A DNA stretch of 64,000 bases from Bacillus sp. DTU_2020_1000418_1_SI_GHA_SEK_038 (GTDB lineage: Bacteria; Bacillota; Bacilli; Bacillales; Cytobacillaceae): positions 620,001-684,000 of the forward strand of contig NZ_CP135435.1 of NCBI RefSeq assembly GCF_032341175.1, in the 5' to 3' direction. The position numbers and the translations under genes were made by a program. A model generated the notes under the pieces. It was not told where the DNA came from and ran no database searches. It saw only the letters and a list, made by a program, of their open reading frames with translations. Positions within the stretch are counted from its first letter, which is position 1, and every line of letters starts with the position of its first letter. Below, piece after piece: positions 5,817 to 46,379 of this stretch.

Positions 5817-7318
5817 AATTAAAAGGGATAACGGAAAATTATCGGGAACGAATGCAGCGATTAGCATTATTTGATCCGTTATTCCGATTAGAAAATAAGA
5901 GGGAAAAGGATGAGAATAACCAACCCATTGATTACTTCGGATATGGTCTATTAACCCTATTATTTTTCTTTGAAAACATGTTAATTAGAAACAAAAAAAC
6001 AAGTATACAAGATTTAGCTCAATATTTATATACGATAAATCGAGGTGAATACTCACTTTCCCTTGGAGGGTTTGAAAAGGTTGCTCGAACCATAGTCGAA
6101 ACCTTTCGTCCACCGAGTGGAAAGCGGAATGAAAAAACATTTTATAACTGGGAAACAAGGGAGTACGAATCTGTCCATTATTCCATTTTAAAAGCCGATC
6201 GAGCAGATGTTAGTTCCAATACCCAATATTATAAATTAGATGAACAAGGGCTAGAACTCGTTTTTGCAACGAAGGAGTATTTCACTGAGTTTCAACTTTC
6301 CATTAACCAGTTAGTCTTAAGGAAACAGCTTGAAAAAGGGGAATTTGTAGGTGCCTTAAGGCAAATTGATGAAATGCATATTGATGTGGAATCGTTAAGA
6401 AATCGAATGACCATTGTGAAACATGAAATTCAACGAAATATTATCTCGGATGAAACGTATGAACGTTATAAACAAATGGTAGAGGACATCAATTCCCGAT
6501 TAACAAGAGAAAATGAGGAATTCACTGAATTACATACTTTCGTAAAAGAAACAAAGAATCGCTTGGCCTACGATATGAACTCGGAAAAGGAGCAAAAAGC
6601 TTACGAATTAATTTTGCAAATTGATCGGGAGCTTGGGGAAGTGCATCATACTCATACAATGTTATTGAAGGAAAGTATCGATTTAAAAACAACAGCGTTA
6701 CATGCTGCACAAGAGGCTCTATATTTTGTAGGGATTGACTCTTTTAACTTTAAACAAGAAATTACAGCTCCGCTAGTAAGTAAACCTTTACCTCTAGTCG
6801 CATCAAAAAGATTAATAGAGCCATTTCTAAAAATTGAACAGAGCGAAACTTGGTCTCCGCTAGTGATTTTTTCAGAGCAACGAATTGAAACACAAGACGG
6901 GATCGAACGAACAAATGACTTTGATGAACTTTCAGACGAGGTATTACAGGAACTAGAAAATGCTCAGGTTCGGAAATTATTTGGGGATATTATGACTCTC
7001 CTTCTAAAGATAATGGAAGGGAAAGATGCCATAACATTAAAAGAAGTGGTCGAACGAATTCGTGTAGAGGATCCTGACTGGTTGAATCGAAGACTATTTT
7101 ATCAATTCTGGTATTGTCTCCATCAACGATCACCCATTATTCATGAAAAAAGAGAGGAAAGTAATGAGTCACTATTTGAAGAAGTTTTAGAGTTAATTAA
7201 ACATCAATATTCCTCTATAGAAGTAGAAGAATTACCTGAAATTATAACAGTGACAGAGCGGTTTTCTATTCAAAATATGAAGCTGCGTTTAATAGTAGGT
7301 GAAGAAGATGGATTATAG
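5807..7318 (+). CDS. jetA: Wadjet kleisin subunit JetA
   Basis: MukF-like kleisin that bridges the SMC heads of the Wadjet complex. The protein has about 503 residues. It has an N-terminal helical winged-helix region and a central helical segment (about 165-310) with long charged heptad-like stretches. An acidic C-terminal part probably contacts JetB and the SMC head. ATG 5807 is chosen because GGAGG lies about 8 bp upstream; the in-frame ATG 5792 overlaps that ribosome site. It overlaps jetD by 10 bp and jetB by 11 bp, so the three are translationally coupled. Assignment rests on family resemblance plus operon position. Confidence 0.8.
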   Translation: MDIELKGITENYRERMQRLALFDPLFRLENKREKDENNQPIDYFGYGLLTLLFFFENMLIRNKKTSIQDLAQYLYTINRGEYSLSLGGFEKVARTIVETFRPPSGKRNEKTFYNWETREYESVHYSILKADRADVSSNTQYYKLDEQGLELVFATKEYFTEFQLSINQLVLRKQLEKGEFVGALRQIDEMHIDVESLRNRMTIVKHEIQRNIISDETYERYKQMVEDINSRLTRENEEFTELHTFVKETKNRLAYDMNSEKEQKAYELILQIDRELGEVHHTHTMLLKESIDLKTTALHAAQEALYFVGIDSFNFKQEITAPLVSKPLPLVASKRLIEPFLKIEQSETWSPLVIFSEQRIETQDGIERTNDFDELSDEVLQELENAQVRKLFGDIMTLLLKIMEGKDAITLKEVVERIRVEDPDWLNRRLFYQFWYCLHQRSPIIHEKREESNESLFEEVLELIKHQYSSIEVEELPEIITVTERFSIQNMKLRLIVGEEDGL

Positions 7319-8042
7319 ACAAGAAGAAGTAATAAAGGCTTTTCAAATTTACGCAAAAATTAGTCAAAAGGGTTATAGTGAGGGCGATGAGCTCAGATTG
7401 TATTTGGCAGAAGACAAGGTTAGAGGGCTCGTTGATCAATTTGCCAAGGAAGTTGATTGTACGATTTTCTCAGTGGGGGAACGCCTCTACTTTGTACCAT
7501 TGGCTTTGAATTCCCCCTTTCATATTTCTAATGATACATTGAAAAAAACTTATTTTACGGGAAAAACAGTTAATGCAGATATTTATTTTATGTATGTGAC
7601 CATTATTATCCTTATTGGAGAATTTTACGATAGTTATCAAACGACAGAGCCTACGCGGGATTTCATTTCGATGAATGACTGGCTAGAGCAAGTGAATGAA
7701 AGGCTAGAAACATTGCAAGCAATCGGGGAAGAAGAATTAAAAGAGCTCGAAAAGGAATACGAGTATAGCTGGAGTGCCATTATTGGAAAATGGGCAGATA
7801 TGGATGATTTAAAAGAAACGGCCAAATCCCAATCTGGAAGAACTATTAGCAGACTTAGTTTTCTTCATACGGTGAAAAGGTTTTTGATTGCGCAAGAATT
7901 AGTGCAAGACATCGGGAACGATGAATTGCAATTAACAGAAAAAGCAAAAGTGATTGTCCAAAGGTATTTTATGGAGTTGGAGTATAATCGGGGTATTTTA
8001 GAGTTTATTTATTCGATTGACCGACAAAAGGAGGAGGTATAA
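7308..8042 (+). CDS. jetB: Wadjet KITE subunit JetB (MukE-like)
   Basis: Small MukE/KITE-type winged-helix protein of about 244 residues that dimerises on the kleisin. It resembles the DUF6063-type JetB proteins: an N-terminal helical domain, a central segment with the hydrophobic FMYVTIIILIGEFY, and a C-terminal winged helix (about 170-230). ATG 7308 is preferred over GTG 7299 because AGGTGAAG precedes it. Its stop codon TAA abuts the jetC ATG directly. Confidence 0.8.
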   Translation: MDYRQEEVIKAFQIYAKISQKGYSEGDELRLYLAEDKVRGLVDQFAKEVDCTIFSVGERLYFVPLALNSPFHISNDTLKKTYFTGKTVNADIYFMYVTIIILIGEFYDSYQTTEPTRDFISMNDWLEQVNERLETLQAIGEEELKELEKEYEYSWSAIIGKWADMDDLKETAKSQSGRTISRLSFLHTVKRFLIAQELVQDIGNDELQLTEKAKVIVQRYFMELEYNRGILEFIYSIDRQKEEV

Positions 8043-27384: not shown

Positions 27385-28158
27385 TTAATTTTGAACACTT
27401 TCTTTGCTAAAAATGGTAGTTCGATGCTTAATTCTATAGCTGTCATTTTCATTTAGTTGAATAACCTCTACTCGATGGAGAAGTCGGTCAAGAATGGCTG
27501 TTGTAATTCCTTGATCACCCATTAACTCACCCCATTGTTCTGGTCCCTTATTAGAGGTCAAAATGACTGAGCTGCGCTCATAAAGATGATTAATCAAATG
27601 GAAAAATAGGTTAGCTTCTCTTTGATCCATTGCCATATACATTAAATCATCAATAATAACCAAATCTGCTTCTTTTAATCTTTTTAGCTGCGTTTGGGAC
27701 TTACGAATATACTCTTCCGTTTTCAATAGTTGAACAAGCTCACCCATTGTAGAAAACGATACTTTATATCCTTTTTGAATAGCTTCATAGCCAAGTCCGA
27801 TACTAATATGAGTTTTTCCAGTCCCAGGCGGGCCCAATAAAATCATATTATACTGTTGTTCAAGCCAATTTAGTTCTTTCAATTGATTTAATTGACGGGC
27901 ACTTACGGATATTTGGTCCTCCACATTAAATTCATCAAGTGTCTTGAGATAAGGGAATTTAGCCCATTTTAGACGCTTTTCCATATTTTTTTCTTCGCGT
28001 CGTGTCAATTCATGGTGAAGCAGCTTTTCAAGAAACTCCAGATAAGTCCAGGACGATTTTTCGGCATTCCGAAGAAGCATTGGCAGCTCATCAGCCGTTT
28101 CCACCATCCGAAGATGGCGGAATTGTTCTTGCAGTGTATGTACAGAAACTGTCATCAT
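27385..28158 (-). CDS. istB: IS21 helper ATPase IstB
   Basis: 257-residue DnaA/DnaC-like AAA+ ATPase that helps the IstA transposase choose targets. Walker A is in LLGPPGTGKTHISIGLG (about 106-122) and Walker B in LVIIDDLMYM (about 167-176). It overlaps istA by 4 bp. The 3' end runs into the left internal repeat of the element. Confidence 0.95.
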   Translation of the reverse strand: MMTVSVHTLQEQFRHLRMVETADELPMLLRNAEKSSWTYLEFLEKLLHHELTRREEKNMEKRLKWAKFPYLKTLDEFNVEDQISVSARQLNQLKELNWLEQQYNMILLGPPGTGKTHISIGLGYEAIQKGYKVSFSTMGELVQLLKTEEYIRKSQTQLKRLKEADLVIIDDLMYMAMDQREANLFFHLINHLYERSSVILTSNKGPEQWGELMGDQGITTAILDRLLHRVEVIQLNENDSYRIKHRTTIFSKESVQN

Positions 28159-29708
28159 GATACGCCTCCCATTGCACTTGTGTAATAATCCATTCCTCTA
28201 GTTACTGCAGTAGCTTTTATTGCGGGGCTGTCAATTTTTGATTTTTTCATTGACTGATCGGATGGGGCCTTTTCTTCTTTTAATCTTGTAAAGTGAAGTG
28301 CAATATCGCGGAAATCATTTGCACTCCACAGCTGCTTTTCGATACAAACAGCGAGGGCTTCCTCTATTTCGGAACGGAAGTGAGTAATGACGTATTGGAT
28401 GATTTGTAACTGGTCCCTGATATATCTTGGATACCTTTGGGCTACTTCATTAATAAACTTTTGGGCTTTTTCCTGATCATCAAACTGGCGTACAATGGTT
28501 TCCTTATAAGCTTGGATTCCTTTTGATCGATCTCTTGAATGTTGTCGGTTCTTAATCAATTCACCTTTTCCGTGACTAAGCGTATGTTTAGCCAGTACCT
28601 CGCCTTCAAGATCTGCCCTTATAATTAGTTCTTCGCCTTTTACCTCTAAATAAACCTTATTATCTCCTCTAGGACGATAAGTTCCTAGCGGAACGGAATA
28701 TCGATTTGATTTATATTTGATAATATTGTCCTTATGAACAGTTCTTGTTATACTTGAACCAAGGTTGTTTTCGTAAGAAAACAGGGCGGAGACAGGTTTT
28801 AAGTGTTGCTTTTCGAGGGCGTGCACTTCAACCGGTCTCTTTTTCGTTGTGTGATGAACATTATAATTACCCGTTCGTTTTAGCCACGCTAAACATTTTT
28901 CATTCCAAGAATCAAGATTAGGAAATACTCTATTTTTCGCGAAGTTCATTTTTACGAACTTTACCACATTTTCTACCTTACCTTTACTTTGGGGATCAGC
29001 TTTCCTACATAAATAGATTCGAAATCCACGCTCTTGTTTATATGATTGAAAATCTCCAGTCAATATTATATCTCCCGCATTTTCACTTACAGTTATTAGG
29101 TGGTCCAGATCATAAACAATTTCCTTTGGAATTCCTCCGAAAAATTGAAATGCTTTTTCATGGCACCGAATCGTATCTCTTGTGGTAAATGGTCTATCTT
29201 GCCATTCCACATATTTAAAGCGAGAATGAGAGAGTACAAAAGTAATAAAGTACAATTTCACAAATGTTTTATCCTGCTTCTTAACCGTTATTTCTCCCCA
29301 ATCCACTTGAACCTGCTGTCCGAGTGGCAACTCCTCCACAGCTTCATGATCACGAATACGAACCACTTTAGGTATGTGATAAAAATCCCTGATTTCACTT
29401 ACATAACCTCTCACAGTACTACCTCCAACAGCTAGTTGAGGTTGGTGCTCTTTTAGCCAATCCTCCACTTGCGCAGAAGATAAATCTGGGTGTTCCTTTA
29501 ACCAACCTAATATTTGATCACGATAGGGATCAAGCTTCTTATGCCGGCTTTGAGAAGATATCACCCAATCAGAAGCTTCCTTAAAAGTCATTTTCAAAAA
29601 CTTATAAACTGTGTTCCTTGAAATCCCTAACTTTTTTGCAATAGCTGCAATCTTAAACCCTTGATCTTTTAATTGATGAATCTCGATGAATAACTGCAAT
29701 TTTTCCAC
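28155..29708 (-). CDS. istA: IS21 transposase IstA
   Basis: About 517 residues. It has an N-terminal helix-turn-helix (IAAIAKKLGISRNTVYKFLK) and a DDE integrase core starting with VQVDWGEITV. The second Asp is in EIVYDLDHLITV and the catalytic Glu in GKVENVVKFVK, followed by the C-terminal beta domain. GTG 29708 gives the usual start MEKLQLFIEIHQL; TTG 29732 is an in-frame alternative. Confidence 0.94.
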   Translation of the reverse strand: MEKLQLFIEIHQLKDQGFKIAAIAKKLGISRNTVYKFLKMTFKEASDWVISSQSRHKKLDPYRDQILGWLKEHPDLSSAQVEDWLKEHQPQLAVGGSTVRGYVSEIRDFYHIPKVVRIRDHEAVEELPLGQQVQVDWGEITVKKQDKTFVKLYFITFVLSHSRFKYVEWQDRPFTTRDTIRCHEKAFQFFGGIPKEIVYDLDHLITVSENAGDIILTGDFQSYKQERGFRIYLCRKADPQSKGKVENVVKFVKMNFAKNRVFPNLDSWNEKCLAWLKRTGNYNVHHTTKKRPVEVHALEKQHLKPVSALFSYENNLGSSITRTVHKDNIIKYKSNRYSVPLGTYRPRGDNKVYLEVKGEELIIRADLEGEVLAKHTLSHGKGELIKNRQHSRDRSKGIQAYKETIVRQFDDQEKAQKFINEVAQRYPRYIRDQLQIIQYVITHFRSEIEEALAVCIEKQLWSANDFRDIALHFTRLKEEKAPSDQSMKKSKIDSPAIKATAVTRGMDYYTSAMGGVS

Positions 29709-30001
29709 CTTTCCAATCCCCCAGTTAAGCAATGATTACAAGAATCATATTATCCCAACTGTTGATCTTTTTGGTAAAAAAGTGTTCATTTCTATCTGGC
29801 GGAAACTGTTGATTTTAGTTTAGCAGTTACAAATGAGCCTATAAATACAAGAAATGTATAGAAACTTGCATATTTAAGGCTCTTTAACTTGTATTCCTTG
29901 TTGTGTTAATGCACCTATTCGTTTAAGTACATTTCTGCACAATCTTTATCTACTTGATATTGGAAAGAAAGCGACTCTCCCCCTAAATAATAGCAATAAA
30001 A

Positions 30002-39584: not shown

Positions 39585-42047
39585 ATGGGAGAGAGTAATA
39601 TAACTGCGGTTTTGGAAGTAGAAGAAAGAAATACGGGTCGACCAAAAAGGACTAGAAAAGGTATAGCTACGCTATTAAAAGATAAAGAAGATAAATATAC
39701 GGGTCGACAAAATGAACTGGATTTATTTAATAATGCCTTAGAGAGCAAAAGGTGGGATGAATATAAAATACTTTCCTATTACGGAGTCGGCGGGATTGGT
39801 AAAACGGAATTACGCAAAAAGATAATGAAGAAACTGGAGAGTCGATCCGAAGTTGAATTCACTTTTATTGACTTTGAAACCGGTGAATTGCAACAAGTAG
39901 AAAAAGCGCTTATCCATTTAAGAACGGAAATTGGTAAAAAGTATCCCGTAGCGTTTACTCTATTTGATGCTGCATACATCATTTATATGGGAAAAACAAA
40001 TAATGCTATTAACCTTAATGAAAAGACTCTGCCCTTTGTTGAAAAGGGAACATGGGTCGCGGATTTTGTTAATATCATAGCGGAAAACCCTTATGTATCA
40101 ATTGCAACTAAACTGATTAACGTTATCTCAAAACGAATAGTACATGCTCTGCCTAAAGAAGATATGGATTTAATACGGAATTTCGAATCATTGGAAGTGC
40201 GTGAGCTACAAGAACTTTTGCCGCAGATTTTTGCAGAAGACTTGGAAAGATACTTACTAAAAACGAATAATAAATTCGTCATTTTTATTGATACATATGA
40301 AGCATTATGGACTGACAAGAGAATGAAGGCTTATGATGGTGCGGTAGATGAATGGATACGAGATCTGGTTCTTGAACTTCCTAATGTTTTTTGGGTAGTA
40401 TTTGGCCGGGAACCTATTGATTGGGGACTTTATGAGGAAACAGAGGATATTGATATTTCCTATGTGCCACTTGACGCATTATCAGAAGCCGAAACAAAAG
40501 AATTATTGGAAAAGCACGAAATTCTTGATATAGCCATTCAAGATGAGATTTATCGAAATTCTGAAGGGCACCCTTATTCTATAAAACTATCCATTGATAC
40601 ATATAATAATATACCTAATCCAGTTGTATCCGATTTTATTGGATTAAGAACGCCAGTTAAATTATTTAATAGATTTATAAAATATCTCTTAGAGCCTGAA
40701 AAACAGGCGTTAGAGTTATTAGCCTTAACGCAAGGTTGGGACATTGATACATATGAACATTTAATGGATTCGTTCCGTATACTGCTGAACGAGGATGACC
40801 ATCATAAACTAACTCGATTTTCATTTATTACACAATTAGATGGTAATACATGGGACATGCATCGGTTAATGCGAGATAGCCTGATTGACTATCAGCGCTA
40901 TGAAAAAATGGTGAAAGGAAGATCTTTTTTATTTAATTATTATAAAAAGGGGCTTTCAAAAGAACTAGTTAGAAAAGAGACTCATTACGCCGGCAAACTC
41001 ATCAATCAAGCATTTTACCAAGGTTTTATGTTAATGGAACAAGGAGAAATTTCAAAAGCGTATTTTATTGATTGGTTTAGAGAGTACGATATCGTCTTTT
41101 TAAATAGCAAGGCAAATTATTTAACATTGCCTCTCTTACATCAGCTAAGAACATTCTTAGAGAACGGAGCTAGTAGAGAGGATGAGAAATATTTAGGTGT
41201 TATTCTTTATGATATTGCTTTTGTCTATATGGATGAAAATCGGGATTACAAGAGAGCAGAGCGTTTATTTAAAGAGGTTTTGGAGCTTCGTGAACAGAAA
41301 TTCTCTGATGATAAAATAATGCTCGCAAAATCTTATTTTGGTTTAGCCACTCTATATCAACGAATGGGACGAAATCAAGAAGCTGAAGTGCTCCATGAAA
41401 AGGCGTTTTCACTGCGCAAACAATACTGTGATTCATCAAATATAATAGGACTAGCATATTCAGCTAATGGACTAGCCATGCTTTATCAAAATAGGAAGGA
41501 TTATGAAAAAGCATTAGAGTATTATGGAATAGCGCTTAGCATCTATGAAAACCTTGATAAATCTCACTATGGCAAAATTTCTACCAGCATGATGAACTTA
41601 ATTAGCTGCTATCATGAATTCCATCAGTACGATAAGGCTTATGAATTTTCCATCAAAGTTATGGACATTGTTAAGAATGACGAGCATTTTAATCAAATTA
41701 GATATGCAGAGGTGCTAAATGTATTTGCTGTCACTAAAACGGCTTTAGGCCAGTATGAAGAGGCACTCGAGCTACTTCAAGAATCTTATGACATCTTTAA
41801 AGACCGGTTAGGTGAAGAAAGTATATATGTGTCAAAGGTATTGCATAACTCTGCTATAACATTTAAGCTGCTGCAAAACGACACCGAAAGCATCAATACA
41901 ATGAATAAGTGCTTAGAAATAAAAAATAAAATGGTCAGCATCGGAACGTTAAAAGAGGAAAATATAAACTACAGCTATAGCCAGGAAATGCAAAGGTTTT
42001 TACAACAAGACACGATCGAATATGACCAATTGAAGTTTAATTTTTAG
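39585..42047 (+). CDS. STAND (NB-ARC-like) ATPase with C-terminal TPRs
   Basis: 820 residues. A short N-terminal basic tail (1-36) leads to a STAND NTPase: GRQNELDLF before the P-loop GVGGIGKTEL (67-76), Walker B KFVIFIDTYEAL (about 229-240), sensor-type FWVVFGREP, and a winged helix ending in WDMHRLMRDSL (about 421-431). That last motif resembles the MHD/IHRL motif of NLR and Apaf-1 relatives. Residues about 545-790 carry five or so tetratricopeptide repeats, the usual ligand-sensing part. No N-terminal effector domain is visible. The amidase gene follows 12 bp later. Confidence 0.88.
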   Translation: MGESNITAVLEVEERNTGRPKRTRKGIATLLKDKEDKYTGRQNELDLFNNALESKRWDEYKILSYYGVGGIGKTELRKKIMKKLESRSEVEFTFIDFETGELQQVEKALIHLRTEIGKKYPVAFTLFDAAYIIYMGKTNNAINLNEKTLPFVEKGTWVADFVNIIAENPYVSIATKLINVISKRIVHALPKEDMDLIRNFESLEVRELQELLPQIFAEDLERYLLKTNNKFVIFIDTYEALWTDKRMKAYDGAVDEWIRDLVLELPNVFWVVFGREPIDWGLYEETEDIDISYVPLDALSEAETKELLEKHEILDIAIQDEIYRNSEGHPYSIKLSIDTYNNIPNPVVSDFIGLRTPVKLFNRFIKYLLEPEKQALELLALTQGWDIDTYEHLMDSFRILLNEDDHHKLTRFSFITQLDGNTWDMHRLMRDSLIDYQRYEKMVKGRSFLFNYYKKGLSKELVRKETHYAGKLINQAFYQGFMLMEQGEISKAYFIDWFREYDIVFLNSKANYLTLPLLHQLRTFLENGASREDEKYLGVILYDIAFVYMDENRDYKRAERLFKEVLELREQKFSDDKIMLAKSYFGLATLYQRMGRNQEAEVLHEKAFSLRKQYCDSSNIIGLAYSANGLAMLYQNRKDYEKALEYYGIALSIYENLDKSHYGKISTSMMNLISCYHEFHQYDKAYEFSIKVMDIVKNDEHFNQIRYAEVLNVFAVTKTALGQYEEALELLQESYDIFKDRLGEESIYVSKVLHNSAITFKLLQNDTESINTMNKCLEIKNKMVSIGTLKEENINYSYSQEMQRFLQQDTIEYDQLKFNF

Positions 42048-42059
42048 AGGGTGACCAAC

Positions 42060-42545
42060 ATGTTTACGATTAAGCCTAACAACTTCCATTTTGTAGAGCC
42101 GCTTGAGGAATTAGAAAAAATTGAAAAATTGATTATTCATCATACATCACGAGTGGATTTTACAGCAGAAGATACCCATCGATTTCATCAAAATGAAAGA
42201 GGCTGGAGCGGTATCGGATATAACTATTTCATAGAGAAAGATGGATCCATTTCCGAAGGCAGAGGACTCCATGTGGGTGCCCATACCTACGGTTATAATC
42301 GTAAAACGATTGGAATTTGTGCTACAGGCGATTTCGATATTGAAAATCCTACAAATGCACAGATCAAATCATTAATTGATATTTGTCATTATTTTATGGG
42401 GAAATATCAACTAAAACCGAAGGATGTTCTTGGACACCGAGAACTGGATGGCTTCGACTACACTACATGTCCGGGAAAGTTATTTAACATGAATGAATTT
42501 CGAACGTTGCTAGAAAAGGTACAAGTAGGTGCTTCAAAAGCTTAG
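42060..42545 (+). CDS. PGRP-type N-acetylmuramoyl-L-alanine amidase, no signal peptide
   Basis: 161 residues, nearly all one Amidase_2/PGRP domain. The zinc ligands are visible: His in LIIHHTS (about 27), His in GHREL (126) and Cys in TTCPGKLF (137); the catalytic Tyr is in GYNYFIEKDG. This zinc amidase cleaves the bond between muramic acid and L-alanine in peptidoglycan. There is no signal peptide, transmembrane segment or cell-wall-binding module, so the protein stays in the cytoplasm unless released. ATG 42060 follows GAGGGTGA. Tight linkage to the STAND gene suggests a joint function. Confidence 0.88.
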   Translation: MFTIKPNNFHFVEPLEELEKIEKLIIHHTSRVDFTAEDTHRFHQNERGWSGIGYNYFIEKDGSISEGRGLHVGAHTYGYNRKTIGICATGDFDIENPTNAQIKSLIDICHYFMGKYQLKPKDVLGHRELDGFDYTTCPGKLFNMNEFRTLLEKVQVGASKA

Positions 42546-42798: not shown

Positions 42799-43182
42799 AT
42801 GACTCCGAAAGAAGAAACATTTGAAGAATTCCTGAAGAACTCATTTGCCAATGATGTGTATTTTCGGGAATTAAGGTTATCACAGGAAGAAGCAGACTAT
42901 GTTTCGAAGAAGTACCCAACAGCTAGCTTGAAAAAGTGCTCAGCAGAATCACCAGATGGAAAGTGCTGGTATGAGGTAAATCTATTGCCTTCTACTTTGA
43001 ATGAACCGGAAACCCTTGAATCTGAAAATCAGCGATTAAAAGAGGAACTCAAAGCATTAAAACTTGAATCTGAAAATCAGCGATTAAAAGAGGAACTCGA
43101 AGCATTAAAGCTCGTATCTGAAAATGAACGTTTAAAAGAGGAACTTGAAGCATTAAGGAAATCCCTTTCTCCTATAAAATAA
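42799..43182 (+). CDS. Hypothetical protein with three-fold 16-residue coiled-coil repeat
   Basis: 127 residues. The first 70 form a small acidic domain with two cysteines. The rest is an almost ideal coiled coil built from three copies of L(E/V)SEN(Q/E)RLKEEL(K/E)AL(K/R) encoded by tandem 48-bp repeats (43015-43158). It probably oligomerises. The copy number of such repeats often varies between strains. The family is not recognised. ATG 42799 has ATGGAGGAAAAAGG upstream. Confidence 0.65.
   Translation: MTPKEETFEEFLKNSFANDVYFRELRLSQEEADYVSKKYPTASLKKCSAESPDGKCWYEVNLLPSTLNEPETLESENQRLKEELKALKLESENQRLKEELEALKLVSENERLKEELEALRKSLSPIK
43015..43158 (+). repeat. Three tandem 48-bp direct repeats
   Basis: Units 43015-43062, 43063-43110 and 43111-43158. 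The first two differ by only a few bases and the third is more diverged. Each encodes one 16-residue coiled-coil unit. Confidence 0.9.
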
Positions 43183-43429: not shown

Positions 43430-45373
43430 ATGAACAAAACAATTGGAATTTTAGCACATGTCGATGCAGGGAAAACGACTTTTTCTGAACAGTTGCTTTA
43501 TCATACAAGCAGTATTAAAAAGCGCGGGCGTGTGGATCATCAAAGCGCCTTTCTTGACAGCCATGAGATAGAGAAGCAGAGGGGGATTACGGTATTTGCG
43601 GATCAAGGCATCTTTGATTTTGGGGAGTCTACTTATTATTTAATTGATACCCCAGGTCATGTTGATTTTTCTCCGGAAATGGAGCGGGCCATCCAAGTGA
43701 TGGATGTTGCGGTTATTGTAGTTAGTGCAGTAGAGGGAGTTGAAGGGCATACGGAAACCGTTTGGAATCTATTAAAAAAGCACCACATCCCAACATTTTT
43801 CTTCATTAATAAAACTGACAGAACAGGGGCAGATATTAATCGGGTATTGGATGAGATTCGCCTTCATTTAACAGAGGATGTTTATGATATTTCTGCGTCA
43901 TTTACAGATGGAATAATGGATGAAGAATTAATAGAATTCATTGCAGAACGTGATGAGGAATTGTTGGAGATTTATATGGAAAAAGGATATGACCCTGATC
44001 TATGGCTGCAAAAAATGCAAGCGATGATTCAATCAGTTCAACTTTTCCCATCCTCAAATGGATCTGCACTCCAGGATATCGGTGTAAAATCCTTTTTAGA
44101 AAAGCTCGAATTATTGTCAGAATCTCATTATCCAATGGATGAACCTTTTGGCGGGCGGGTATATAAAGTTCGATATGAAGAAAGTGGAACAAGAGTTACT
44201 TTTATAAAGGCGCTTAGCGGCGTGTTAAATGTGCGTGATGAGCTTTGTTATGAAGATGGAAACACTGAGAAAGTGACACAAATCCGCCGATATAATGGAA
44301 GTCAATATGAACAAGTTAATCAGGTTAGGGCTGGCGAGCTTTTTGCAGTTACCGGGCTCGCAAACGCCTCTGTAGGTGATGGAGTTGGTACGCTAAAGGA
44401 AAAGGCGTTTTTCGAAATGGTTCCTACTCTACGATCGAAAGTAGTGTTTGAATCTGGAGTGAACGTAAAAGAGGCTTTGCGATTTTTTCGTATGCTGGAA
44501 GCGGAAGATCCTTCTCTCCAAGTTATCTGGGTGGAGCGTTTACAGGAAATCCATCTTCATGTAATGGGAGCGATTCAGCTAGAAGTGTTAGTGCAAGTAG
44601 TTCGAGATCGGTTTCATTTACACATAGCTTTTGAAAAGCCTGAGATTGTTTATAAGGAAACGATTGAAGATGAGGTTATTGGGTATGGTCACTTTGAGCC
44701 GCTTCGTCATTATGCAGAGGTTCATGTGAAATTAGAGCCTGGAATTAGAAATAGTGGGATTGTTTTTGAAAGTGTGTGCCATCCAGATGATTTATCGATT
44801 GGATTACAAAACTTAGTTGGTCAGCATCTTTATGAACGGGAGCTTCACGGATTGCTTACTGGCTCATCACTAACAGATTTAAAAGTGACATTGTTAAAGG
44901 GGAGGGCCCACAATCAGCATACACATGGCGGCGATTTTCGAGAAGCCACCTACCGTGCTTTAAGACAAGGATTAGAAAAGGCTAGAAACATTCTGCTCGA
45001 ACCATGCTATCAATTCAAAATTAAAGTAGATCTGGATCAGATGGGGCGAGTATTAGCGGATATCCAATCAGCCTATGGTCATTTTGAGCCGCCAGTTACA
45101 GATGGAGAAAAAGCGATTATATCTGGGATCGTTCCTGTTGCTACCTTTATGGAATACAGCACAGTACTTGCTTCTTTTACACAAGGCAAAGGTCGCATAA
45201 GTTTGACATTCGGAGGTTATCAACGCTGCCATAACGAGCAAGAAGTGATTGATCGTATCGAATATGATAAAAATGCCGATCCAGACTTTACTTCTTCTTC
45301 AATATTTTGTGCAAAGGGTCAAGGATTTTCTGTTAAATGGGACGAAGCTGAAGGGATGATGCATTGTTTATAA
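43430..45373 (+). CDS. TetM-like ribosomal protection protein (EF-G-type GTPase)
   Basis: 647 residues. G1 is AHVDAGKTTF (9-18), G2 has RGITV, G3 is DTPGHVDF and G4 is NKTD, followed by EF-G domains II to V. The overall plan matches TetM/TetO/OtrA proteins that free the ribosome from tetracycline. Chromosomal relatives are common in Bacillus and do not all give clinical resistance; the C-terminal loop residues that contact the drug site cannot be judged by eye. The upstream region has an AATTTACCT spacing without a clear leader peptide such as tetM carries. Confidence 0.85.
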   Translation: MNKTIGILAHVDAGKTTFSEQLLYHTSSIKKRGRVDHQSAFLDSHEIEKQRGITVFADQGIFDFGESTYYLIDTPGHVDFSPEMERAIQVMDVAVIVVSAVEGVEGHTETVWNLLKKHHIPTFFFINKTDRTGADINRVLDEIRLHLTEDVYDISASFTDGIMDEELIEFIAERDEELLEIYMEKGYDPDLWLQKMQAMIQSVQLFPSSNGSALQDIGVKSFLEKLELLSESHYPMDEPFGGRVYKVRYEESGTRVTFIKALSGVLNVRDELCYEDGNTEKVTQIRRYNGSQYEQVNQVRAGELFAVTGLANASVGDGVGTLKEKAFFEMVPTLRSKVVFESGVNVKEALRFFRMLEAEDPSLQVIWVERLQEIHLHVMGAIQLEVLVQVVRDRFHLHIAFEKPEIVYKETIEDEVIGYGHFEPLRHYAEVHVKLEPGIRNSGIVFESVCHPDDLSIGLQNLVGQHLYERELHGLLTGSSLTDLKVTLLKGRAHNQHTHGGDFREATYRALRQGLEKARNILLEPCYQFKIKVDLDQMGRVLADIQSAYGHFEPPVTDGEKAIISGIVPVATFMEYSTVLASFTQGKGRISLTFGGYQRCHNEQEVIDRIEYDKNADPDFTSSSIFCAKGQGFSVKWDEAEGMMHCL

Positions 45374-45862: not shown

Positions 45863-46102
45863 TTACGGAAATAAGCTTTCTTCTTCAAGACCTTCATCTA
45901 ATTTCTGATCACTGACATCAGGGTCTATATAATTTGTGCATGAAATACCAGTTGATGTCATGACCCATCCTCCAACATTTTTTGACCCGCCTCCAGATGG
46001 ATCTTTTACAGCAGATTTAGGTGAGATAGACATTGTATTACCGAAATTAACAATGCCTCCCGTTACTTTGTGTATCTGAATTTCTCCGAAAATTGATGCC
46101 AT
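45863..46102 (-). CDS. GerPA/GerPF-family spore germination protein
   Basis: 79 residues: EIQIHKVTGGIVNFGNTMSISPKSAVK, then GSGGSKNVGG-like linker and ending SCTNYIDPDVSDQ, the GerPA/PF pattern (GGVVNFGD...ATNTFDPDVNDQ). These proteins sit in the inner coat and help germinants through it. ATG 46102 is chosen because AAAAGGATG precedes it. The open frame extends upstream to 46309, but that part encodes unrelated hydrophobic sequence. It is a lone gene, not in a gerP operon. The C-terminal Glu-rich tail is longer than usual. Confidence 0.8.
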   Translation of the reverse strand: MASIFGEIQIHKVTGGIVNFGNTMSISPKSAVKDPSGGGSKNVGGWVMTSTGISCTNYIDPDVSDQKLDEGLEEESLFP

Positions 46103-46379
46103 CTTTATTAACATCCTTTTGAAAAAATATTTATTAGCATCATATGTTTCATTCATCAAATTGAAACTTGGTTTAGCGAGAGAAAATGACAGGAGTGCAG
46201 CATAAATGCCGAATGCCAATATGTCATAATTTTTATAGACTAAAGCTAGTGGCAGTCCCAATAAGTGAGTAGTCCAATCTTGGGCGAACCAAATCATCGT
46301 ACTTCTCATATTTTATGAATAGTAGGACAAACACAATGTGATCTTCTAATCATAAATTTCTTTTAAGAGGGGATAACGA

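What the first reader, a model, noticed from the sequence alone, without database searches (positions are those of the whole stretch)
39585..42545. STAND ATPase with TPRs in tandem with a cytoplasmic PGRP-type peptidoglycan amidase
The sequence shows a complete NB-ARC-like core (GVGGIGKT, a Walker B, an MHD-like MHRLMRDSL) and a TPR sensor, but no effector domain at its N-terminus. A one-domain zinc amidase with all ligands follows 12 bp later, and it lacks any export signal. STAND proteins in bacteria commonly act as immune sensors that switch on an effector. Here the effector may be encoded in trans and may attack the cell wall, giving lysis on infection. The parallel with animal PGRP and NLR proteins is striking, though possibly only formal. 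I do not know a described system with this pairing.
Basis: partly seen in the sequence, partly recalled or inferred. Interest (0 to 1): 0.8.

Follow-up and report, generated by a model that had tools for sequence, protein, structure and literature searches.

The report
Immune-like ATPase paired with wall-cutting enzyme
A bacterial sensor protein built like animal and plant immune switches is encoded together with a small enzyme of a kind that cuts the bacterial cell wall, and the pair recurs in several genera of bacilli, which suggests a sensor-and-weapon unit whose purpose is not yet tested.

Summary
ORF 39585-42047 is an 820-aa STAND ATPase with a TPR sensor; an intact 161-aa zinc amidase follows 12 nt later (best start ATG 42060). 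Neither shows a signal peptide or membrane stretch. The pairing is not chance: the same STAND lies directly upstream of the amidase in 7 of 46 amidase loci (Fredinandcohnia, Neobacillus, Paenibacillus, Lysinibacillus), at STAND identities down to 33%. From the STAND side, 5 of 5 loci of this clade have the amidase, 0 of 14 related STAND loci do. Not in the finding: in 8 of 8 pairs the STAND stop is TAG, in or just before the amidase ribosome-binding region; and clade members share a tail, (L/V/C)-x-(F/L)-(N/D)-F-COOH (I for N/D in one of 15). The amidase often lacks the STAND, but no tailed STAND of seen context (8) lacks the amidase, so the STAND probably controls the amidase. A prophage relic is very unlikely. 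An anti-phage lysis role is plausible but unproven: a clear defence gene adjoins the pair in 1 of 6 contexts scanned, and how a cytoplasmic amidase would reach peptidoglycan is unknown. New variant of a known kind.

The parts
39585..42047 (+). STAND ATPase with TPR sensor, 820 aa; probable regulator
   Evidence: ORF; TPR and weak AAA_16/NACHT/NB-ARC matches; AlphaFold2 mean pLDDT 85.7
39783..39806 (+). P-loop GVGGIGKT (residues 67-74)
   Evidence: G67, G69, G70, G72, K73 invariant in 14 aligned homologues, T74 nearly invariant
40275..40310 (+). Walker B-like FVIFIDTYEALW (residues 231-242)
   Evidence: F234, D236, T237, Y238, E239 and W242 invariant
40857..40883 (+). MHD-like MHRLMRDSL (residues 425-433)
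   Evidence: M425, H426, L428, M429 invariant
41175..41939 (+). TPR superhelix (about residues 531-785)
42030..42044 (+). C-terminal tail LKFNF-COOH (residues 816-820), hallmark of the amidase-linked clade
   Evidence: tail pattern in P0001-P0012 and in none of the other 108 of the 120 homologues listed (of 125 found); codons vary; block 811-820 has pLDDT 88
42045..42059 (+). STAND stop TAG and the amidase ribosome-binding region (likely translational coupling)
   Evidence: stop is TAG in 8 of 8 pairs, gap 10-13 nt to the likeliest amidase start
42060..42545 (+). One-domain zinc amidase (Amidase_2 / PGRP-type N-acetylmuramoyl-L-alanine amidase), 161 aa, no signal peptide
   Evidence: Pfam; AlphaFold2 pLDDT 93.7; nearest PDB LysC 6srt/6ssc, then 7f5i and PGRP-LB 7nsx; T7 lysozyme 1lba further down; catalytic residues
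42799..43182 (+). Small coiled-coil protein, 127 aa, beside the pair also in F. onubensis although the outer flanks differ; not seen beside the other pairs, so probably not essential
   Evidence: 68% in L036, L037; homologues in 14 of 101 genomes including own; neighbours

Best explanation
A two-gene STAND/amidase module. The STAND is probably made in step with the amidase, through a stop codon that lies at the amidase ribosome-binding region (sequence shown, coupling inferred). At rest the STAND is probably ADP-bound and monomeric, held shut by contacts between its nucleotide-binding core and its TPRs as in MalT/PH0952, with the C-terminal F-x-F tail perhaps docked on the TPRs (a hint from the model). 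A trigger bound by the TPRs, most likely something made or disturbed during phage infection, opens the core. ATP binding and oligomerisation follow, and the assembly recruits or switches on the co-made amidase. The amidase then cuts the MurNAc-L-Ala bond, either in wall reached from inside through a damaged membrane or in precursors at the inner face. Growth stops or the cell lyses. Shown: anatomy, conserved tandem, catalytic residues, purifying selection, and that the tailed STAND was seen only with the amidase while the amidase is often alone. Inferred: everything about trigger, contact and outcome.
For: Tandem in 7 of 46 amidase loci found without using the STAND. Found from the STAND side, 5 of 5 loci of this clade and 0 of 14 related STAND loci have the amidase. 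One STAND clade (100/100); lineage order in the amidase tree is alike, with weak support there. TAG stop at the amidase ribosome-binding region in 8 of 8, and dN/dS 0.09-0.22 in both genes. Active-site residues kept in 10 of 10. Patchy: tailed STAND in 1 of 36 genus genomes and 3 of 193 family genomes, with unlike flanks in F. onubensis. Wadjet JetC next door in F. onubensis. A relative (27%) on a mobilizable Priestia plasmid follows a gene annotated HEPN, with a restriction endonuclease near. Precedents: LypB, an ATPase-TPR NLR-like protein needed for cell lysis (PMC13236601); peptidoglycan-attacking domains proposed as effectors in systems some of which hold a STAND (PMC7159879).
Against: No functional data. 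No holin, pore or export signal seen beside the pair, so access to wall is unexplained. Lone amidases in Ureibacillus, Lysinibacillus, Neobacillus and Clostridium persist without a STAND, so this enzyme family has another role too. Only one of six contexts scanned holds a clear core defence gene. HEPN on the Priestia plasmid was not confirmed by Pfam or NCBIfam. The nearest solved enzyme, LysC, owed its killing by external addition to a charged N-terminal extension rather than its active site (PMC7404271 abstract), and no such extension is seen here.
Confidence: 0.45

Rival explanations
1. Muropeptide sensing. The STAND is a bacterial NOD-like receptor for peptidoglycan fragments in the cytoplasm, and the amidase trims or destroys the ligand, as amidase PGRP-LB quenches immune signalling in flies (recalled). 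The output would be another, unlinked protein.
For: The amidase fold is nearest to LysC, a clostridial endolysin and then animal PGRPs, PGRP-LB first among them. The enzyme appears cytoplasmic like AmpD, which is a more distant match. Tailed STANDs of seen context always have the amidase, the amidase often lacks the STAND.
Against: No conserved third gene to carry the output. No evidence that the TPRs bind sugars; the solved TPR domains most like them (Rap, NprR, KLC1, LGN) are complexes with peptides or proteins in many rows.
Confidence: 0.2
2. Programmed autolysis or wall remodelling in sporulation or another developmental step, not defence. The amidase acts when the mother cell opens, and the STAND licenses it.
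For: The hosts of the closer relatives are Bacilli and clostridia, groups known for spores (recalled). Cytoplasmic amidases without signal peptides are known in mother-cell lysis (recalled, no call).
Against: Very patchy presence, 1 of 36 genomes of the genus with the tailed STAND, and different neighbours in each lineage do not fit a core developmental gene.
Confidence: 0.15
3. The amidase works as a binding protein, as T7 lysozyme does when it inhibits T7 RNA polymerase; its wall-cutting activity is secondary.
For: T7 lysozyme and its RNA polymerase complex are among fold matches (1lba, 1aro).
Against: Zinc ligands and Tyr54 are fully kept; a pure binder would not need them.
Confidence: 0.05
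4. Chance neighbours, or the amidase is a leftover prophage lysin.
For: Amidase_2 enzymes are common in phages (107 relatives in viral contigs; 1541 phage records).
Against: Tandem kept over several genera with the stop codon at the ribosome-binding region. Viral relatives are 40-42% over most of the protein, bacterial ones reach 86%. Purifying selection on both genes.
Confidence: 0.02

Closest known systems
MalT / PH0952-type STAND ATPases with TPR sensor
   Different: No DNA-binding domain found by Pfam; neighbour is an enzyme gene; conserved C-terminal F-x-F tail
CARD-NLR-like systems (LypABC; Lysobacter gasdermin system)
   Same: NLR-like ATPase with TPR-like repeats encoded with separate enzymes; LypB needed for lysis (PMC13236601)
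   Different: Those have CARD adaptors and peptidases; here no adaptor domain seen and a peptidoglycan amidase
EAD1 / STAND conflict systems with peptidoglycan-attacking domains (Kaur et al. 2020, PMC7159879)
   Same: Idea of peptidoglycan attack by separately encoded effectors in systems some of which hold a STAND
   Different: Those are mostly alphaproteobacterial, with lysozyme-like and papain-like domains joined by EAD1; here Bacilli, an Amidase_2 enzyme, and no N-terminal domain on the STAND
LysC of Clostridium intestinale (6srt, 6ssc) and PGRP amidases
   Same: Closest solved folds, 34% identity for 6srt, same type of zinc site (PMC7404271 abstract)
   Different: LysC has a charged antibacterial N-terminal extension and was studied as a lytic enzyme

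Membership tests
STAND ATPase | P-loop, Walker B, GxP and MHD-like motifs plus a repeat sensor | tested here: met
   motifs conserved in 14 homologues; TPRs; NACHT, NB-ARC and AAA_16 below curated cut-offs
STAND ATPase | nucleotide-dependent oligomerisation | not testable with these tools
   needs protein work
Amidase_2 / PGRP-type amidase | fold and zinc ligands H, H, C with catalytic Tyr | tested here: met
Known anti-phage STAND systems (Avs and others in PADLOC 2.0.0) | match to a defence-system profile | tested here: inconclusive
   only a generic TPR model, E 1.7e-6; library of 2023
CARD-NLR system | CARD adaptor or N-terminal interaction domain | tested here: not met
   residues 1-34 low confidence, core begins at about residue 36; no third gene shared by all pairs
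FxSxx-COOH TPR system (NF040586) | score above 300 bits | tested here: not met
   57 bits, TPR region only
Phage endolysin / prophage relic | phage neighbours or phage-like sequence | tested here: not met
   no phage genes among the neighbours examined; viral relatives 40-42% over most of the protein. PHROGs lysis families do match it, E down to 7.8e-33, as expected for an amidase of this fold (inference)
Anti-phage defence system | protects against phage | not testable with these tools
   needs plating assay

The most novel reading that the evidence does not exclude
A family of bacterial NLR-like ATPase-TPR sensors each coupled to a separately encoded hydrolase through a short C-terminal tail that doubles as self-lock and docking code: F-x-F-COOH with a PGRP-type amidase here, and L-(M/L/P)-(F/Y)-L-COOH in a second clade, where one locus examined (and its near-copy in the same genus) has a metallo-hydrolase gene downstream. 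The amidase is then an intracellular wall-attacking immune effector.
Probability: 0.2. Interest if true: 0.8.

Novelty: new variant of a known kind. Interest (0 to 1): 0.6.

Why it matters
If the amidase is the output of the STAND, this is an immune-like switch whose weapon is a peptidoglycan amidase of the PGRP fold, in one bacterial tandem of two genes. It would be small enough to reconstitute, would show how a trans-encoded effector is chosen by a short tail, and would ask how a cell keeps a wall-cutting enzyme harmless in its own cytoplasm.

Tried and rejected
Prophage-lysin relic: rejected. No phage record matched the STAND; the one viral-contig relative was 26%. Plasmid carriage of the pair: none seen; best plasmid amidase 41%, best plasmid STAND 27.5% (followed). 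First genome scan with the single STAND found nothing. Defence island: PADLOC on 58 neighbour proteins (window and 5 of the 7 loci; L037 and L053 left out because their neighbours resemble those of L036 and L052) gave JetC as the one clear core defence gene. The other 14 families listed there besides JetC and DrmD (such as RtcR, WYL, Csa3, mad2, RmrA) were not traced to single members; I took them for generic regulators or chance. The 'DrmD' match is an IS21 IstB protein by Pfam. Coiled-coil gene as third component: weakened, because homologues occur in genomes without the pair and it was not seen beside the Neobacillus, Paenibacillus and Lysinibacillus pairs. Stop-codon read-through fusion: in frame in the window and F. 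onubensis only, not in the other pairs (coordinates), so not pursued. Tail as a by-product of the ribosome-binding site: rejected because codons differ while residues stay. Resemblance of the STAND tail to the amidase N-terminal segment (LKFNF against NNFHF): seen, but lone amidases have it too, so not used. Solved-structure sequence search with the STAND core gave nothing meaningful. The structure comparison tested mainly residues 441-820, so the absence of NLR chains there says nothing. Papers: searches listed no description of this pair; several lists were capped (for example 20 of 778 papers) and the library holds open-licence papers only.
Full report
What is there. The window carries an intact 820-aa ORF at 39585-42047 (+) and an intact amidase ORF ending at 42545. 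The first has TPR repeats well above the curated cut-off and only weak AAA_16, NACHT and NB-ARC matches, but the STAND signature is complete by eye and by conservation: GVGGIGKT, FVIFIDTYEALW, GHP and MHRLMRDSL (motif names recalled). AlphaFold2 gives mean pLDDT 85.7 with residues 1-34 under 50, so no N-terminal effector domain is predicted. The TPR part resembles MalT domain III, Rap/NprR peptide sensors and kinesin light chain TPRs. The second ORF is an Amidase_2 enzyme, modelled at pLDDT 93.7, nearest to LysC of Clostridium intestinale, then a C. perfringens endolysin and PGRP-LB, with T7 lysozyme and AmpD further down. Its start is best placed at ATG 42060. Neither protein has a hydrophobic stretch typical of export or membrane insertion.

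Is the pairing real? Amidase relatives were sought without using the STAND. Of 46 loci from GTDB representative genomes, 7 have the same STAND gene directly upstream on the same strand: two Fredinandcohnia onubensis, Neobacillus citreus and N. rhizophilus, Paenibacillus auburnensis and Paenibacillus sp. DMB5, and Lysinibacillus endophyticus. In the other 39 no STAND was detected; four of these hold under 1.6 kb upstream (L061, L062, L064, L068) and one gave no amidase ORF over the threshold (L081). From the STAND side, profile searches of 193 family and 397 order genomes gave 5 loci of the tailed clade, own included, all 5 with the amidase. They also gave 14 loci of related tail-less STANDs scoring over 200 bits, none with it; L122, a TPR-only fragment, and weaker matches were left out, and these loci hold only about 210 to 1260 bases downstream. 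Four of the five tailed loci appear to be the same as four of the seven above, judged from ORF lengths and ends, so together there are 8 pairs. Two more are suggested by equal contig lengths, 5530 and 12940, but their gene order was not seen. For the remaining tailed homologues the context is unknown.

Coupling and selection. In 8 of 8 pairs the STAND ends in TAG, and the likeliest amidase start follows after 10-13 nt, with a purine-rich stretch that includes or follows the stop. The site is weak in L. endophyticus, whose likeliest amidase start is a TTG. Pairwise dN/dS is 0.09-0.22 for both genes. The zinc ligands and Tyr54 are unchanged in 10 of 10 amidases compared (8 from seen pairs, 2 from inferred pairs); the residue two before the zinc Cys is Thr in 5 and Lys in 5, and residue 29 is Ala instead of Thr in both Neobacillus.

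The tail. The 15 tailed STANDs printed end in (L/V/C)-x-(F/L)-(N/D)-F-COOH, with I for N/D in one (P0002). Among the 120 homologues listed (of 125 found) the tail is in the first 12 and in none of the other 108. The tailed proteins form one clade (100/100). Because they are one clade, tail and amidase may mark common descent as much as a working link; what argues for function is that the tail stays while the rest falls to about 33% identity. Codons differ at these positions while residues stay. In the model, block 811-820 has pLDDT 88. In the comparison with two KLC1 TPR structures that carry a fused cargo peptide, the last model residue (820) aligns with chain residues 707/708, which lie beyond the TPR domain and so should be the peptide (chimera design from passages of PMC6214655). 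That hints at a tail in the TPR groove.

One-way dependence. The amidase tree needs 5 changes of the paired label (at least 4 forced), and lone amidases of Ureibacillus/Lysinibacillus and N. niacini lie beside paired ones from L. endophyticus and Neobacillus. Six rows there are proteins whose context was not seen and were counted as unpaired. The STAND tree has the order ((Neobacillus, Paenibacillus), (Lysinibacillus, Fredinandcohnia)) with strong support. The amidase tree shows the same order with weak support (83/66 and 91/83). Simplest reading: an old pair, from which the STAND was lost several times while the amidase stayed. Lone amidases lie behind other genes: a PP2C-like phosphatase gene in 7 of 7 loci of the N. 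niacini group, 15-16 nt away in the four measured, and a TetR-type gene 41-49 nt away in L041-L044, though not in L038 or L039. So the amidase is probably not a toxin that needs the STAND to be tolerated; the STAND looks like an added control. Three of the 8 seen pairs were found through the amidase, so the one-way dependence rests mainly on the 5 of 5.

Mobility. Within the genus only the window genome has the tailed STAND (1 of 36; a second genome, G021, has a tail-less relative). The window and F. onubensis share STAND (77%), amidase (86%) and a small coiled-coil gene (68%), while none of the nine other window genes tested was found in the 7-kb F. onubensis flanks: JetC lies upstream there and a CBS-domain gene here. 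The apparent F. onubensis genomes belong to another family of the order. This suggests horizontal movement as a block. The coiled-coil gene was not seen beside the other pairs.

Defence link. JetC3 of Wadjet abuts the pair in both F. onubensis genomes. Of 58 neighbour proteins from six contexts (the window and five of the seven loci) no other clear core defence gene was identified. A 27% relative of the STAND on a mobilizable Priestia megaterium plasmid follows 32 nt after a gene the record calls HEPN domain-containing, with a restriction endonuclease near; Pfam and NCBIfam did not confirm HEPN. In a second STAND clade the tail is of the type LLFL, LMFL, LMYL or LPFL, and one locus of it (L120, with near-copy L121) has a metallo-beta-lactamase-fold gene 26 nt downstream. 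This may point to a wider pattern of STANDs with trans partners; it was not followed further.

How it most likely works. From STAND biology (PMC6468293, abstract and one section read) the resting protein should be a closed ADP form held by sensor-core contacts; an inducer on the TPRs opens it and it multimerises. The co-encoded amidase is the only partner shared by all pairs seen, so it is the best candidate output. The main difficulty is access: no pore, holin or signal peptide. Either the membrane is breached by something else, such as a phage holin, or the substrate is a precursor at the inner face. This is inference.

What is known. Kaur et al. 2020 proposed lysozyme-like and papain-like peptidoglycan-attacking domains joined by EAD1 in systems some of which hold a STAND (PMC7159879, passages and one section read). 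In the 2021 follow-up (PMC8195603) the words amidase, peptidoglycan, cell wall, PGRP and lysozyme do not occur in the main text (word search with passages). LypABC shows an ATPase-TPR NLR-like protein driving lysis (PMC13236601, abstract and one section read). LysC is known to me here from its abstract and outline only. I found no paper describing this pair in the searches, several of whose lists were capped.

Verdict. Real, conserved and under selection; immune role plausible but untested. New variant of a known kind.

Noticed in passing
L045-L051, about 6141-7474: Lone amidases of the Neobacillus niacini group lie directly behind a PP2C-like phosphatase gene in 7 of 7 loci, another possible regulator-enzyme tandem.
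   Followed up: partly
L041-L044, about 6367-7459: In one Lysinibacillus and three Ureibacillus loci the lone amidase follows a TetR-family gene by 41-49 nt.
   Followed up: partly
P0076, P0079, P0082, P0084, P0086, P0090, L120: A second clade of STAND-TPR proteins ends in L-(M/L/P)-(F/Y)-L-COOH; L120 has a metallo-beta-lactamase-fold gene 26 nt downstream. P0086 was not in the tree.
   Followed up: partly
L148:3745-8078: Priestia megaterium mobilizable plasmid: a STAND-TPR relative 32 nt after a gene annotated HEPN, near a restriction endonuclease and a DUF87 protein.
   Followed up: partly
L036:3-4340 and L037:3-4322: Wadjet type III JetC gene immediately upstream of the STAND-amidase pair in both F. 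onubensis genomes; other Jet genes were not looked for.
   Followed up: partly
window 43430-45373: EF-G-like GTPase that resembles tetracycline ribosomal protection proteins but scores below their curated cut-off (416.8 against 775 bits).
   Followed up: no
window 43015-43158: Three tandem 48-nt repeats in the small coiled-coil ORF 42799-43182; a second copy, 52% identical over the matched part, lies elsewhere in the genome, G000:C1:422891-423169.
   Followed up: partly
window 27388-29732: IS21-type IstB gene with a 525-aa ORF beside it, about 10 kb from the pair; PADLOC calls the IstB protein DrmD, apparently a false label.
   Followed up: partly
window 45863-46309: 148-aa ORF with a gerPA spore-germination domain only at residues 70-136, behind an N-terminal stretch without a Pfam match.
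   Followed up: no
L121:496-2991: A related tail-less STAND in one genome is split by an in-frame stop.
   Followed up: no
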